Below are positions 41,453 through 45,870 of a DNA stretch of 64,000 nucleotides, in pieces. Source of the DNA: Halolamina pelagica. Its GTDB lineage: Archaea > Halobacteriota > Halobacteria > Halobacteriales > Haloferacaceae. The position numbers were made by a program, and so were the translations under genes. The notes under the pieces were generated by a model. It was not told where the DNA came from. It searched no databases and saw only the letters and a program-made list of their open reading frames with translations. Every line of letters begins with the position of its first letter. The first letter of the stretch is position 1. The stretch is taken from the NCBI RefSeq assembly GCF_900115675.1, contig NZ_FOXI01000001.1:62001-126000 (forward strand), written 5' to 3'.

Positions 41453-42304
41453 CTACGGCGCGACGGTCCACCAGAGCGCGACGACGACCAGCCCCCCGAG
41501 CACCGTCGACGCCACCGCGTGCAGGCGCAGGCGGTCGAGCACCGCGTGGGCGTCGTCGTCGACGCTCAGCGCGTCGTGGACCTCGCTCCCGAGTTCACAC
41601 CGCGGGAGGAAGTCCATCGCGACGTGGAGGAACACGCCGGTCGCGAAGCCGAACACCAGCCCGTTCAGCGGCCCCGAGGCGGGCAGGCTCACCGCGCTCG
41701 CCAGCACCGCGACGACGCCGACGCCCGCCGCCGGCAGGAGGATGGGGAGCCACGAGCGACCGTTCCGGGCGAGTCGATCCGCGGCGGCGTAGCCCGCCGG
41801 CCCCTTGTGCGAGACGATCGCGACGCCCAGCAGCGGCCCCAGTTCGGGCATGTTCCCGTAGACGATCCCGATGATCGCTCCCGCGGCGGCGGCGTGGGCG
41901 GTCAACTGCGCCACCGTCGCGTCCATCGGGAGCTCGATGTGGGAGAGCCGGTGGCCGATCGCGTGGCCCGCGAAGCCCACGATCACGCCGGTCGCGACCC
42001 CCAGCCCGCCGAACCGCAGGTGGTGGTTCAGCGCGTCGGGGAGCAGGAAGAGGCCGACGCTGACGATCATCGCGCCGCTGGCCAGCCCGGAGCCCCAGAC
42101 TAGCGTTCCCGGCCGGTTCTGGTCGGTTCGCAGCGCCATCGCGACGCCGCCGACCATCGCCGCGAACGCGACCCAGCCGATCTGGATCGGCTTCCACGCC
42201 CCCGTCACCGCCGCGATCCCGGTGGCACCCAGCAGCGACAGTACCCCGATCGCGCCGACGATCCGCTCGCCGCGACGTGACTGCGTACTCGCCTCTGTAT
42301 CCAT
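41453..42304 (-). CDS. ZIP family metal transporter
   Basis: A 283-residue membrane protein with eight helices, like ZIP transporters for Zn2+, Fe2+ or other divalent metals. The first binding-site helix reads TAHAAAAGAIIGIVYG and the second GVAIVSHKGPAGYAAADRL, in place of the usual HNxxDG and HExPHE. The loss of several His/Glu residues means altered metal choice or mechanism. LHVAMDFLPRCELG is another family mark. It converges directly (adjacent bases) on the small membrane gene. Confidence 0.82.
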   Translation of the reverse strand: MDTEASTQSRRGERIVGAIGVLSLLGATGIAAVTGAWKPIQIGWVAFAAMVGGVAMALRTDQNRPGTLVWGSGLASGAMIVSVGLFLLPDALNHHLRFGGLGVATGVIVGFAGHAIGHRLSHIELPMDATVAQLTAHAAAAGAIIGIVYGNMPELGPLLGVAIVSHKGPAGYAAADRLARNGRSWLPILLPAAGVGVVAVLASAVSLPASGPLNGLVFGFATGVFLHVAMDFLPRCELGSEVHDALSVDDDAHAVLDRLRLHAVASTVLGGLVVVALWWTVAP

Positions 42305-42351: not shown

Positions 42352-43587
42352 TCAGCGCGGGAGCTTCCCCGGCTCGCCGTCGTGACGGATGTACTCGACG
42401 GCGATCCCCGTGATCGGCGCGTCGGAGGCGTCGGCGGCGTCGCGGGCGGCGTCGAGGTAGGCCTCCGTGATCGAGACCACGGCGTCGTAGGCCGCGGCGT
42501 CGGTCTCGGCCAGCAGGTACTCCGCGGTGACGGGGGTGAGCTGGCCCTCGCGGACGTCCGCCGCGAAGTCGTCCACGTCGTCGAGCCAGACCTGCGCGCC
42601 GACGATCGACAGCACGACCGCGCGCTCGAACTCCGGGGAGAGCTCGATGCCGGCCTCGCGGAACATCTCGATCATCCCGTGGTAGATGACGCCCACCCGG
42701 CCGTACTGGGTGACGAGGTAGGGGAGGTCGAGTTCGGCCGTCTCGAACAGCACCGGTGGCTCGTCGAACGGGGGGTGTTTGTACTCCGCTCGAAGCGCCT
42801 CGCGGGCGGTCTCCGGATCGCGGCTGCCGCTCTCGCCGTCCACGTCCGCGGCGGTCACGTCGGCGACGGCGTCGGCCTCGGCGGCGGCGACGGCGTCGGC
42901 CATCAGCTCCCGGAAGTGGGGGTCGCGGTCCTGGTGGGCCTCCGAGCGCTCGACGGCGGCGTCGTAGGACGCCCGAACCTCGTCGTCGAACGCCGCGAAC
43001 TGCTCCTGTACCGCGGCCTGCAACACTTCCTGAGCGATGTCGGCGACTCGAGCGCGGTCCTCGACGTCGAAGTCGACCGCGAAGTCCTCGTACTCGCCGT
43101 CGTTGATGGCGTCGCGCATGTCGCCGTCGAGCAGGGCGACGACGACCAGTTCCGCCACCTCACGGGCGCGTCGGGTCTCACGAACGAGTTCGGCGGGGTC
43201 GGCGTCGGCCGCGGACCGCCGCCGACGGAGCCGCGAGATCGGGTCGGTCGCGCGCCGGCCGGAGATCGGGTCGACCCCGGGCGGCGTCGTGGCGCTGGCC
43301 CGGCGGTAGACGTGTGCGAGCGTGAGCTCGACCGGGAGCGTGAGCTTGGTGTCGTAGTCGAACGCGACGGACTCGCGGCCGAACTCGTCGGCCAGCGCGG
43401 CCTCCACGTCGGCGTAGGCGTCCTCGATCATCGCTTCGACTTCGGCTTCGACGCGTCGCTGGAGGCGGATCGCCCTGAGTTCGAGCGAGCCGCCGGCCGC
43501 GTAGTGACTGAACACCGCGCGGGCGGGCGTCGGGAGCGCGTCGACGCCCGCGAGCCGGTCGGCGATCCCGCGGAGCGGTCCGGACAT
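42352..43587 (-). CDS. Acidic helical protein of unknown function
   Basis: A 411-residue soluble protein starting MSGPLRGIADRLAG. Residues 40-130 include LRAIRLQRRVEAEVEAMIED and FDYDTKLTLPVELTLAHVYR. The middle (about 150-270) is helical and charged, and the C-terminus holds PYLVTQYGRVGVIYHGMIEM and ERAVVLSIVGAQVWLDDVDD, which read as an all-alpha domain. ATG 43587 is supported by a TATA-like element 24-33 bases upstream; another ATG at 43626 is possible. No family is recognised. It is head to head with the PcrB-like gene. Confidence 0.72.
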   Translation of the reverse strand: MSGPLRGIADRLAGVDALPTPARAVFSHYAAGGSLELRAIRLQRRVEAEVEAMIEDAYADVEAALADEFGRESVAFDYDTKLTLPVELTLAHVYRRASATTPPGVDPISGRRATDPISRLRRRRSAADADPAELVRETRRAREVAELVVVALLDGDMRDAINDGEYEDFAVDFDVEDRARVADIAQEVLQAAVQEQFAAFDDEVRASYDAAVERSEAHQDRDPHFRELMADAVAAAEADAVADVTAADVDGESGSRDPETAREALRAEYKHPPFDEPPVLFETAELDLPYLVTQYGRVGVIYHGMIEMFREAGIELSPEFERAVVLSIVGAQVWLDDVDDFAADVREGQLTPVTAEYLLAETDAAAYDAVVSITEAYLDAARDAADASDAPITGIAVEYIRHDGEPGKLPR

Positions 43588-43610
43588 GGCTCGGAGTGAG
43601 CCGACCAGGG

Positions 43611-43620
43611 GTTTGAAACT
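43611..43620 (-). promoter_or_regulatory. TATA-like element for unknown gene 42352-43587
   Basis: AGTTTCAAAC on the minus strand lies 24-33 bases before ATG 43587. Confidence 0.45.
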
Positions 43621-43640
43621 GTCCATCCCCGAACCGACCG

Positions 43641-43648
43641 GGTTTTTG
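43641..43648 (+). promoter_or_regulatory. TATA-like element for PcrB-like gene
   Basis: GGTTTTTG lies 24-31 bases before ATG 43672. Only 84 bases separate the two divergent starts. Confidence 0.5.
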
Positions 43649-43671
43649 CCCTCCCGCGGCGAGGTGCCTGT

Positions 43672-44931
43672 ATGCGACGGGACCTCGCGGCGCGGGGCGA
43701 ACGCGCGGTCGACACCGCGCGGCTGCTCGCCCGGAGCGTGCTCGACACCAATCCGGTGCCCGACTGGGAGCACGTGACGAAAGTCGACCCGGAGGGCGCG
43801 AAGAAGCTCCCGCTGCTCTACCCGCTCTGGCTCGCCGAGACCGACGCCGTCTCGGTCGGCGGCTCCTCGGACGTGACGCCGGCCAACACCGCGGCCGCGT
43901 TCGACCTCCTGGCGCCGCTGTCGACGCCGGTCTGTCACGAACCCAGCGGCGCCGACCACGTCACCGAGCAGAGCCACGACGTCGCCGACCTGCTGCTCGT
44001 GCCGGAGGTGCTCAACGGCGACAGCGAGGCGCTCGTGGGGACGCTGGGGACCGCGATCGAGAGCGTCCGGGAGGAGCTCGCTCCCGAGTTGATCCGCCGG
44101 AAGGCGTCGTGGCTCCCCGACCGCGTCGCCGACTGGCTCGCGGGCGTCGCCACATCGCTGCTGCTCTCGGAGGCCGCCTTCGAGGCGTACATCGTCCAGA
44201 ACCCCGACAGCGCGGCCGCCCGCGAGTCCGGCGTCGGCGCCGAGGACCTGCTCGACCCGACCGACGCCAAGCGCCGGGCGATGGCCGCCGACCGCCACCT
44301 CGAGTCCGAGATCGTCTACCTCGAGTACTCGGGCACGTTCGGCGGGGACGAGGCGGTCGAGACGCTCGAACGCATCGACGGTGCGCTGGTGCGCTCGCGA
44401 GTCTGGTACGGGGGCGGCCTCGCGAACGCCGAGGACGTGCGGGCGGTCCGCGAGGCCGGCGCCGACACCGTCGTCGTCGGCGACGCGTTCCACCGCGTGG
44501 CCGAGCGGGAGGCCGACCTGTTGGAGCAGGCGGCGACCGATCTCGACGCCGACGCGTCGCCCGAGACGATCCGCGAGTGGGTCGCCGACCGCGTCGACGC
44601 CGAGGGGTCGGGCGCCCGCTTCCTCTCGACCGTGCCCGGCGTCGACGACCCGGTCGCGCTGGCGCGGGAGTACACCGGCACGACCGTGCGCGCGTGGCTG
44701 GAACTGCGAGCGCGGTCGCGGCGCGCCCGCGAGGGGAGCGGGGAGCCGACCGTCGACGTGCAGGACACCACGCTCCGGGCCGCGCTGGCGCCGATCGTCG
44801 ACGACCCCGACGCGCTCGCGGCGGCGATCGCGCGGGGTGCGCTCGCTGGCCCCGACGACGTGGTGGCGGACGGCTCCCGTCGGTCCGACCAGCTCAGCGC
44901 CTCGCTGGTCGACGCCGGAACGTCACACTAA
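43672..44931 (+). CDS. PcrB/GGGP synthase-like prenyltransferase with C-terminal extension
   Basis: A 419-residue protein. Residues 31-285 match the TIM-barrel geranylgeranylglyceryl phosphate synthase family, which makes the first ether bond of archaeal lipids from glycerol 1-phosphate. Family motifs: HVTKVDP (34-40), SVGGSSDVTPANT (61-73), HEPSG (89-93), LVPEVLN (109-115), AYIVQNPDS (172-180), EIVYLEYSG (213-221), VWYGGGL (244-250) and ADTVVVGD (264-271). Two oddities are an insertion around 125-165 and about 130 extra residues after 290 with no known domain. Normal family length is about 230-250, so it may be a specialised paralogue. Confidence 0.8.
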   Translation: MRRDLAARGERAVDTARLLARSVLDTNPVPDWEHVTKVDPEGAKKLPLLYPLWLAETDAVSVGGSSDVTPANTAAAFDLLAPLSTPVCHEPSGADHVTEQSHDVADLLLVPEVLNGDSEALVGTLGTAIESVREELAPELIRRKASWLPDRVADWLAGVATSLLLSEAAFEAYIVQNPDSAAARESGVGAEDLLDPTDAKRRAMAADRHLESEIVYLEYSGTFGGDEAVETLERIDGALVRSRVWYGGGLANAEDVRAVREAGADTVVVGDAFHRVAEREADLLEQAATDLDADASPETIREWVADRVDAEGSGARFLSTVPGVDDPVALAREYTGTTVRAWLELRARSRRAREGSGEPTVDVQDTTLRAALAPIVDDPDALAAAIARGALAGPDDVVADGSRRSDQLSASLVDAGTSH

Positions 44932-45180: not shown

Positions 45181-45870
45181 ATGAGTATCCCCTCGTTCGT
45201 GGTCGGCATCGCCGGCGGCACCGGCGCCGGCAAGACCACGGTCGCCCGCCTGATCACCGAGAGCGTCGGGGAGTCGGTGACCCGGATCCCCCTCGACAAC
45301 TACTACGAGGATCTGAGCCACCTCGACCGCGAGGAACGGGAGGCGGTCAACTACGACCACCCCGAGGCGTTCGAGTGGGAGCTGCTGCGGGAGCACCTGC
45401 GCGCGCTCTCGGAGGGGCAGGCCGTGGAGATGCCCCAGTACGACTTCGAGATCCACAACCGCAAGGACGAGCGCGTCACCGTGCTCCCGACGGACGTGAT
45501 CATCGTCGAGGGCATCCTCGCGCTGTACGACGAGACCATCAACGACATGATGGACCTCCGGCTGTACGTCGAGACCGACGCCGACGTGCGGATCCTCCGG
45601 CGGATCAAGCGCGACGTGATCCAGCGCGGCCGGGCACTCGAGGACGTGATCGACCAGTACCTCTCGACGGTGAAGCCGATGCACGAGCAGTTCATCGAGC
45701 CGACGAAGAAACACGCCGACCTGATCATCCCCGAGGGCGCCAACTCCGTGGCGGTCAACCTGCTGGAGGAGAAGATCGAAGCCGAGATCGAGGGCGAGGG
45801 GACCCGCACGTGGGAGCGCGGGTCGCTCGAAGGCGAGTTGGGCGAGCGGATGTCGCTGGAAGAGGAGTAG
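45181..45870 (+). CDS. udk: Uridine kinase
   Basis: A 229-residue P-loop kinase that phosphorylates uridine and cytidine for pyrimidine salvage. The Walker A motif GGTGAGKT is at residues 12-19. Substrate-site phrases are PLDNYYEDLSHLDREERE, NYDHPEAFEWELL and MPQYDFEIHNRKDERV; the lid region is RRIKRDVIQRGRALEDVIDQ. The C-terminal LIIPEGANSVAVNLLEEKI is typical. Length is normal. A repetitive hairpin region follows. Confidence 0.95.
   Translation: MSIPSFVVGIAGGTGAGKTTVARLITESVGESVTRIPLDNYYEDLSHLDREEREAVNYDHPEAFEWELLREHLRALSEGQAVEMPQYDFEIHNRKDERVTVLPTDVIIVEGILALYDETINDMMDLRLYVETDADVRILRRIKRDVIQRGRALEDVIDQYLSTVKPMHEQFIEPTKKHADLIIPEGANSVAVNLLEEKIEAEIEGEGTRTWERGSLEGELGERMSLEEE

What the first reader, a model, noticed from the sequence alone, without database searches (positions are those of the whole stretch)
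42352..44931. PcrB-family lipid enzyme with unknown extension, head to head with an unknown gene
The GGGP synthase barrel keeps its motifs (KVDP, GGS, HEPSG, YIVQNPDS, YLEYSG, YGGG, VVVGD) but has an internal insertion and about 130 extra C-terminal residues. Haloarchaea normally have a separate enzyme of 210-250 residues for ether lipids. This longer form may use another prenyl donor or acceptor. Opposite it, 84 bases apart, lies a 411-residue helical protein of no known family.
Basis: partly seen in the sequence, partly recalled or inferred. Interest (0 to 1): 0.6.

Follow-up and report, generated by a model that had tools for sequence, protein, structure and literature searches.

The report
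Replacement enzyme for archaeal membrane lipids
Next to an unusual, enlarged version of the enzyme that starts archaeal membrane lipids lies a gene no database recognises, which probably makes the second chain link of those lipids in the roughly one-fifth of sampled salt-loving archaea that lack the textbook enzyme for that step.

Summary
Window 43672-44931 (+) encodes a 419-aa PcrB/GGGP synthase with an internal insert and a helical C-terminal extension. 84 bases away, 42352-43587 (-) encodes a 411-aa protein (P0002) of no catalogued family. The genus is Halolamina, and its genome also has a canonical GGGP synthase.

The long PcrB is a third haloarchaeal group-I clade, sister to the known second paralogue "IaH2". 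All catalytic residues are kept. In five sampled genera it is the only PcrB protein, so it is very probably a working GGGP synthase.

The surprise is P0002. Its confident model (pLDDT 90) has the trans-isoprenyl-diphosphate-synthase fold (best matches MoeN5 and polyprenyl synthases), with two invariant Asp-rich motifs. It accompanies every long PcrB (36/36 genomes). Elsewhere it sits beside the lipid geranylgeranyl reductase.

Among 292 haloarchaeal genomes, P0002 and the UbiA-type second-ether-bond enzyme (DGGGP synthase) exclude each other: 62 have only P0002, 227 only DGGGPS, 1 both, 2 neither (one of these is an assembly gap). Halolamina's five UbiA proteins include no DGGGPS.

Best explanation: P0002 is a non-homologous replacement DGGGP synthase (inferred, about 0.75). 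No biochemistry has been done.

The parts
42352..43587 (-). P0002: 411-aa all-helical protein of no catalogued family, isoprenyl-diphosphate-synthase fold; proposed replacement DGGGP synthase (second ether bond)
43081..43128 (-). P0002 residues 154-169, first Asp-rich motif DGDMRDAINDxEYEDF (D154, G155, D156, D159, N162, D163, E165, D168 invariant in 44 relatives), at the C-terminal end of a long helix, like the first DDxxD motif of prenyl synthases
42520..42594 (-). P0002 residues 332-356, second Asp-rich motif Q-x2-LDDxDD-x3-D-x4-QLTPxTAE (invariant in 44 relatives), resembles the second DDxxD motif
43588..43671 (.). 84-bp shared divergent intergenic region; AT-rich boxes (TTTGAAA for P0002, GGGTTTTTG for the PcrB gene) lie about 25 bases before each start, as expected for leaderless haloarchaeal promoters (inference from sequence)
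43672..44931 (+). Long PcrB / GGGP synthase (P0001), 419 aa
43759..44517 (+). (beta/alpha)8 PcrB barrel, residues 30-282; catalytic Y173, Y216, E218 and phosphate-site S220, G221, G247, G248, V269, G270 invariant in 32 long forms
44068..44151 (+). Internal insert, about residues 133-160, present in IaH2 and long forms and absent from canonical IaH1
44524..44928 (+). C-terminal extension, residues 285-419; helices at 271-290, 297-305, 313-319, 327-354, 367-372, 379-391, confident (pLDDT 92-98) to about residue 350; no Pfam/NCBIfam match; only in long forms

Best explanation
The two divergent genes are consecutive steps of archaeal membrane-lipid synthesis. The long PcrB protein joins a prenyl diphosphate (most likely C20 GGPP) to sn-glycerol-1-phosphate, giving GGGP. 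The neighbour P0002, a soluble, very acidic protein with the class I isoprenyl-diphosphate-synthase fold, then uses Mg2+ held by its two Asp-rich motifs to ionise a second GGPP and transfer the prenyl group to the sn-2 hydroxyl of GGGP, giving DGGGP. P0002 therefore replaces the membrane-embedded UbiA-family DGGGP synthase, which these organisms lack. Shown here: fold by prediction, invariant motifs, linkage to GGGPS and to the lipid reductase GGR, and near-perfect mutual exclusion with DGGGPS. Inferred: the reaction, the substrates, and the idea that the PcrB extension docks or channels to P0002.
For: (1) Mutual exclusion in 292 haloarchaeal genomes: P0002 in 63, DGGGPS (NF009521) in 228; P0002 only 62, DGGGPS only 227, both 1, neither 2; Fisher p 6e-60. 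One of the two 'neither' genomes (G199) has its DGGGPS locus in an assembly gap, both flanks ending at contig ends. (2) The swap recurs: the two genes flip inside one genus (g63: G158 against G155 and G237), and a 25-genome proxy tree forces at least 6 changes of P0002 on well-supported branches; wherever DGGGPS also differs it goes the opposite way. (3) No spare UbiA takes over: all ten DGGGPS-positive genomes checked carry a 146-167-bit UbiA, and 12 of 13 P0002-only genomes lack one; the exception, Halolamina's 153-bit hit, is a heme o synthase-like protein, and its other four are heme o synthase, MenA, lycopene elongase and a CruF-like protein. (4) Fold: VIA Z 19.4 to MoeN5 (250 residues, 3.1 A) and 16.5-18.7 to dozens of prenyl synthases; Foldseek top 50 are all prenyl diphosphate synthases. 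(5) Two invariant Asp-rich motifs in 44 relatives. (6) Context: within 1.2 kb of the long GGGPS in 30 of 36 genomes in more than one orientation, and beside geranylgeranyl reductases in 15 loci, one of them over the NCBIfam cut-off for the haloarchaeal DGGGP-lipid reductase (777.7 against 700 bits). (7) P0002-only genomes without the long PcrB (27) have a canonical GGGPS and no DGGGPS, so P0002 is the common factor, not the long PcrB. (8) Precedent: MoeN5, the best fold match, prenylates the lipid begun by MoeO5, a PcrB homologue (PMC7839719, PMC13096315).
Against: No biochemical data. MoeN5 makes a C-C bond, whereas the proposed reaction makes a C-O bond. Sequence profiles do not detect a relation to prenyl synthases (hhalign probability 0.4%), so homology rests on a predicted fold. 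The first motif is DGDxxD rather than DDxxD. One genome (G238, Halorubellus) has both genes. The independent-pairs test is too small to reach p 0.05 alone. Another gene with the same distribution, outside the loci examined, could be the real enzyme.
Confidence: 0.74

Rival explanations
1. P0002 is a prenyl diphosphate synthase that makes a special donor (for example C25) for the long GGGPS next to it, and has nothing to do with the second ether bond.
For: Fold and Asp-rich motifs; the limiter Trp of canonical GGGPS is Ala/Gly in the long form, read from the ungapped segment.
Against: 27 genomes have P0002 with only canonical GGGPS. Halolamina keeps its two standard prenyl synthases and Halorhabdus-type genera keep three, so nothing needs replacing there. 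It does not explain the loss of DGGGPS in 62 of 63 genomes.
Confidence: 0.1
2. P0002 is a non-catalytic partner (scaffold or regulatory subunit) of an unidentified DGGGP synthase that shares its distribution.
For: The first Asp motif is non-canonical; the relation to synthases is by fold only.
Against: Both motifs are invariant over 44 divergent relatives, as expected of an active site. No other gene next to P0002 follows it through all loci, and no extra UbiA is specific to P0002 genomes.
Confidence: 0.1
3. One reading: the long PcrB is a second, specialised GGGPS for another prenyl donor or acceptor, and P0002 is an accessory to it.
For: Two PcrB genes in Halolamina; Ala/Gly at the limiter position; published suggestion that the sister paralogue IaH2 (Leu limiter) takes longer chains (PMC9385802).
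Against: In g23, g42, g48, g54 and g68 the long form is the only PcrB protein (holders named), so it must supply ordinary GGGP. P0002 occurs without it in 27 genomes.
Confidence: 0.05
4. The long GGGPS itself forms both ether bonds, through its C-terminal extension.
For: All long-form genomes but one (G238) lack DGGGPS.
Against: 27 further genomes lack DGGGPS and have P0002 but no long form.
Confidence: 0.01

Closest known systems
Haloarchaeal GGGPS group IaH2 (Peterhoff 2014, as described in PMC9385802)
   Same: Same PcrB barrel, same internal insert, sister clade in the tree (99% SH-aLRT for IaH2 plus long)
   Different: The long form has about 135 extra C-terminal residues, Ala/Gly instead of Leu at the limiter position, forms its own clade (98%), and always travels with P0002
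UbiA-family DGGGP synthase (NF009521 / PRK12882; MjDGGGPS)
   Same: Proposed same reaction and pathway position; Asp-rich motifs for a prenyl diphosphate
   Different: Unrelated fold: UbiA is integral membrane with nine TM helices (PMC9385802), P0002 is soluble (best 19-residue hydropathy 1.05, net charge -45); mutually exclusive distribution
MoeN5 (moenomycin prenyltransferase), partner of MoeO5
   Same: Best fold match (Z 19.4, 3.1 A over 250 residues); acts on the prenyl-glycerate lipid started by a PcrB homologue
   Different: 11% identity; MoeN5 makes a head-to-middle C-C bond on a trisaccharide lipid; actinobacterial secondary metabolism
trans-Isoprenyl diphosphate synthases (FPPS/GGPPS, PF00348)
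   Same: Fold and two Asp-rich motifs
   Different: Not detected by PF00348 or by profile comparison; first motif DGDxxD; proposed acceptor is GGGP, not IPP

Membership tests
GGGPS/PcrB family, group I (P0001) | PcrB barrel by sequence and fold | tested here: met
   PF01884 84.5 bits against cut-off 23.9; Z 24-25 to group I PcrB/GGGPS structures
GGGPS/PcrB family, group I (P0001) | Catalytic Tyr/Tyr/Glu (Af Y124, Y165, E167) and phosphate motif | tested here: met
   Y173, Y216, E218, S220, G221, G247, G248, V269, G270 invariant in 32 long forms
Haloarchaeal canonical GGGPS IaH1 (TIGR04147) | Score over the curated cut-off; Trp limiter; no insert | tested here: not met
   93.3 against 300 bits; Ala/Gly limiter and insert; separate clade
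GGGPS IaH2 | Shared insert and clade; Leu limiter; about 255 aa | tested here: not met
   Insert shared and sister clade, but own 98% clade, Ala/Gly limiter, 419 aa; NF003199 162.8 against cut-off 169
GGGP synthase activity (P0001) | Prenylates G1P with GGPP | not testable with these tools
   Inferred from being the sole PcrB in five genera
UbiA DGGGP synthase (P0002) | UbiA fold or family | tested here: not met
   No PF01040 match; prenyl-synthase fold instead. It may work like a DGGGPS without being one by descent
Class I isoprenyl diphosphate synthase superfamily (P0002) | All-helical class I prenyl-synthase fold | tested here: met
   Z up to 19.4, still 16.5 at rank 50, all prenyl synthases; predicted model only
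Class I isoprenyl diphosphate synthase superfamily (P0002) | DDxxD at both motif positions | tested here: inconclusive
   Second motif DDxDD invariant; first is DGDxxD; no residue-level superposition available
Polyprenyl synthase family PF00348 (P0002) | Detectable sequence homology | tested here: not met
   No hit; hhalign probability 0.4% against 14 haloarchaeal synthases
DGGGP synthase function (P0002) | Forms DGGGP from GGGP and GGPP | not testable with these tools
   Inferred from mutual exclusion, context and fold

The most novel reading that the evidence does not exclude
About one-fifth of sampled haloarchaeal genomes (62 of 292) make the second ether bond of their membrane lipids with a previously unrecognised, soluble, prenyl-synthase-fold enzyme that has displaced the UbiA-type DGGGP synthase several times independently, and in more than half of the P0002-bearing genomes it comes with an enlarged partner GGGP synthase.
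Probability: 0.72. Interest if true: 0.92.

Novelty: new variant of a known kind. Interest (0 to 1): 0.84.

Why it matters
The second ether bond is a defining step of archaeal membranes, and the papers read here name only the UbiA-family DGGGP synthase for it. Replacement of that step by an unrelated fold, in named culturable genera (Halolamina, Halorhabdus, Halapricum, Halovenus, Halorussus, Halosimplex), would show that this part of the 'lipid divide' machinery can be swapped. It would also explain a gap in many haloarchaeal genomes, give a new biocatalyst for archaeal lipids in engineered cells, and name a function for a family that now has none. It parallels the moenomycin pair MoeO5/MoeN5, suggesting that a PcrB-type first step followed by a prenyl-synthase-fold second step arose twice.

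Tried and rejected
Loss of standard prenyl synthases compensated by P0002: rejected, counts are normal. Long PcrB doing both bonds: rejected by 27 P0002-only genomes. A P0002-specific UbiA as hidden DGGGPS: not found. Halolamina's extra UbiA of 153 bits as DGGGPS: NCBIfam places it with heme o synthases at 207 bits, just under the cut-offs, and only 31.7 bits to the DGGGPS model. Profile-profile link of P0002 to prenyl synthases: none, and no convincing PDB sequence hit. AAA_assoc_2 hit of P0002 (E 0.013, under cut-off): chance. Searching P0002 through the phylum: 6 of 247 genomes, all haloarchaea. A published report that haloarchaea lack DGGGPS was sought in several searches and papers and not found; subscription papers are not held. 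The MAFFT column for the limiter residue was ambiguous (one search gave S131); the Ala/Gly reading comes from the ungapped VP-x-V-x-N-G segment shared with IaH2 (A128). The second DGGGPS-less, P0002-less genome (G186, 180 contigs) stays unresolved.

Full report
CHECK. The window carries a 419-aa PcrB-family gene (43672-44931 +) and, 84 bases away on the other strand, a 411-aa gene (42352-43587 -). The named motifs, the internal insert and the extra C-terminal residues are all there. Named relatives put the window in Halolamina: Halolamina pelagica, H. salifodinae and H. rubra proteins are 79-89% identical. The genome holds a second, canonical PcrB gene (233 aa, contig C16).

THE LONG PcrB. Sequence and fold make it a group I GGGPS: PF01884 84.5 bits, Z 24-25 to PcrB/GGGPS structures and 18 to MoeO5. 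The three catalytic residues and the phosphate site are invariant in 32 long forms. Haloarchaea are known to have two group I paralogues, IaH1 with a Trp limiter and IaH2 with Leu (PMC9385802). Twenty short relatives that I fetched fit IaH2 (GKHxEL segment or close variants). The long form shares their internal insert, and a tree gives three clean clades, IaH1 (99), IaH2 (97) and long (98), with IaH2 and long together (99) (quick tree, SH-aLRT only, midpoint root). So the insert is not special to this protein; the C-terminal extension is. The limiter position is Ala or Gly, which leaves a longer donor open. The model puts a confident helical domain at about 271-354, weaker beyond.

Distribution: 36 of 292 haloarchaeal genomes have the long form at E<1e-85. 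In genera g23, g42, g48, g54 and g68, at 98-99% completeness, the PcrB search finds one gene only, of the weak score typical of the long form; one search names Halorhabdus, Halapricum, Halovenus and Salinibaculum among holders. There it must be the working GGGPS. In Halolamina and Halorussus it stands beside the canonical one.

THE NEIGHBOUR. P0002 has no Pfam or NCBIfam match in any of 44 relatives above cut-off. An AlphaFold2 model from those relatives has pLDDT 90.2 and pTM 0.88. Foldseek's top 50 are all prenyl diphosphate synthases (E about 1e-2, probability up to 1.0). VIA-align gives MoeN5 Z 19.4 (250 residues, 3.1 A) and other prenyl synthases 16.5-18.7 down to rank 50, well above the level quoted for unrelated helical bundles (about 14 at best, up to 13 at rank 50); MoeN5 and the polyprenyl synthases are practically tied. 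Two Asp-rich motifs are invariant in 44 relatives: D154-G-D-x2-D-A-x-N-D-x-E-x2-D-F and Q332-x2-L-D-D-x-D-D-x3-D-x4-Q-L-T-P-x-T-A-E. The second resembles the second DDxxD region of prenyl synthases (FQIQDDVLD...ENKQTL in haloarchaeal enzymes). Sequence profiles alone do not link the families. P0002 is soluble and acidic by composition.

CONTEXT. All 36 long-form genomes also have P0002; in 30 the genes lie within 1.2 kb, in four within 5 kb, in two apart (positions). Orientation varies: divergent in Halolamina, Halorussus and Halosimplex, same direction in Halovenus and Halapricum. A second, named collection agrees: 42 of 51 long-form loci show P0002 within the DNA held, and some of the misses are truncated contigs. 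P0002 also occurs without the long form in 27 genomes (g13, g27, g37), which have canonical GGGPS. In g27, g37 and several long-form genera it stands near, mostly divergent to, a geranylgeranyl reductase: 15 loci in all. In G227 that neighbour is the haloarchaeal digeranylgeranylglycerophospholipid reductase over its curated cut-off (777.7 against 700); in g42 and Halovenus it is a reductase-superfamily paralogue below the equivalog cut-offs. So P0002 sits among genes for the steps before and after the second ether bond.

THE DECISIVE TEST. If P0002 belongs to the lipid pathway and has a prenyl-transfer fold, which step is missing? Halolamina has five UbiA proteins, none of them DGGGPS. Over 292 genomes the DGGGPS model NF009521 hits 228 and misses 64. 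P0002 only 62, DGGGPS only 227, both 1 (G238, Halorubellus, which also has IaH2 and looks like a fresh acquisition), neither 2; Fisher p 6e-60. Of the two 'neither' genomes, G199 breaks at exactly this locus: the sister's flanks match the ends of two contigs and the stretch between is absent; G186 (180 contigs) is unresolved. UbiA repertoires in 25 genomes show that P0002-only genomes lose the DGGGPS class and gain no other (the DGGGPS class reads 146-167 bits; Halolamina's 153-bit hit is the exception discussed under Tried and rejected). Shared ancestry inflates the p value, but the swap recurs: inside genus g63, between g30 and g56, and at least six times on supported branches of a heme-o-synthase tree of 25 genomes; in every independent pair where DGGGPS differs it goes opposite to P0002 (4-5 pairs, 0 contrary; sign test p 0.06-0.125, limited by pair number).

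MECHANISM. Shown: fold (predicted), motifs, linkage, exclusion. Inferred: P0002 binds GGPP-Mg at the two Asp motifs, ionises it and prenylates the sn-2 OH of GGGP. Precedent for a prenyl-synthase fold acting on a lipid begun by a PcrB homologue is MoeN5 after MoeO5 (PMC7839719, PMC13096315); there the bond is C-C. UbiA DGGGPS is itself described as having structural elements like those of soluble prenyl synthases (PMC9385802), so the chemistry is plausible. The extension of the PcrB occurs only where P0002 occurs, though P0002 also works (by inference) with canonical GGGPS; a docking or channelling role is a guess.

NOVELTY. I found no report of haloarchaea lacking DGGGPS or of this protein family in the papers held. 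The fold is known and the reaction is known; their combination, and the recurrent displacement, would be new.

Noticed in passing
G238 (Halorubellus): P0002 C11:62152-63345, long PcrB C11:67265-68275, IaH2 C7:147518-148231, DGGGPS present: The only genome of 292 with both P0002 and DGGGPS, plus long and IaH2 PcrB; looks like a recent acquisition caught before loss. Its genus mate G265 has DGGGPS only.
   Followed up: partly
G043, G071, G100, G207 (g38) and G077 (g50): These genomes seem to have only an IaH2-type PcrB and no canonical GGGPS, so IaH2 too may be able to carry all GGGP synthesis.
   Followed up: no
G000:C17:91523-92260 (L274): Halolamina carries a second heme o synthase-like UbiA protein (351 aa) not seen at that score in the other P0002-only genomes checked.
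   Followed up: partly
L113:5904-7358, L104:7089-8516: In Halovenus and g42 the gene divergent to P0002 is a geranylgeranyl-reductase paralogue well below the DGGGP-lipid reductase cut-offs, so the reductase may have been exchanged as well.
   Followed up: partly
L100:11520-12651 and the same place in L096-L102: In g30 (Halorussus) and g14, P0002 is followed by a KaiC/DUF7504-like ATPase gene and a CoA-binding-domain gene.
   Followed up: no
G182 (f3, g67): Seven PF00348 polyprenyl synthase matches, against two or three in nearly all haloarchaea.
   Followed up: no
window 41453-42304 (-) and 45181-45870 (+): Genes flanking the pair look like a ZIP-type metal transporter and a uridine kinase (read from sequence, not searched); neither was seen as a conserved neighbour outside Halolamina.
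   Followed up: no
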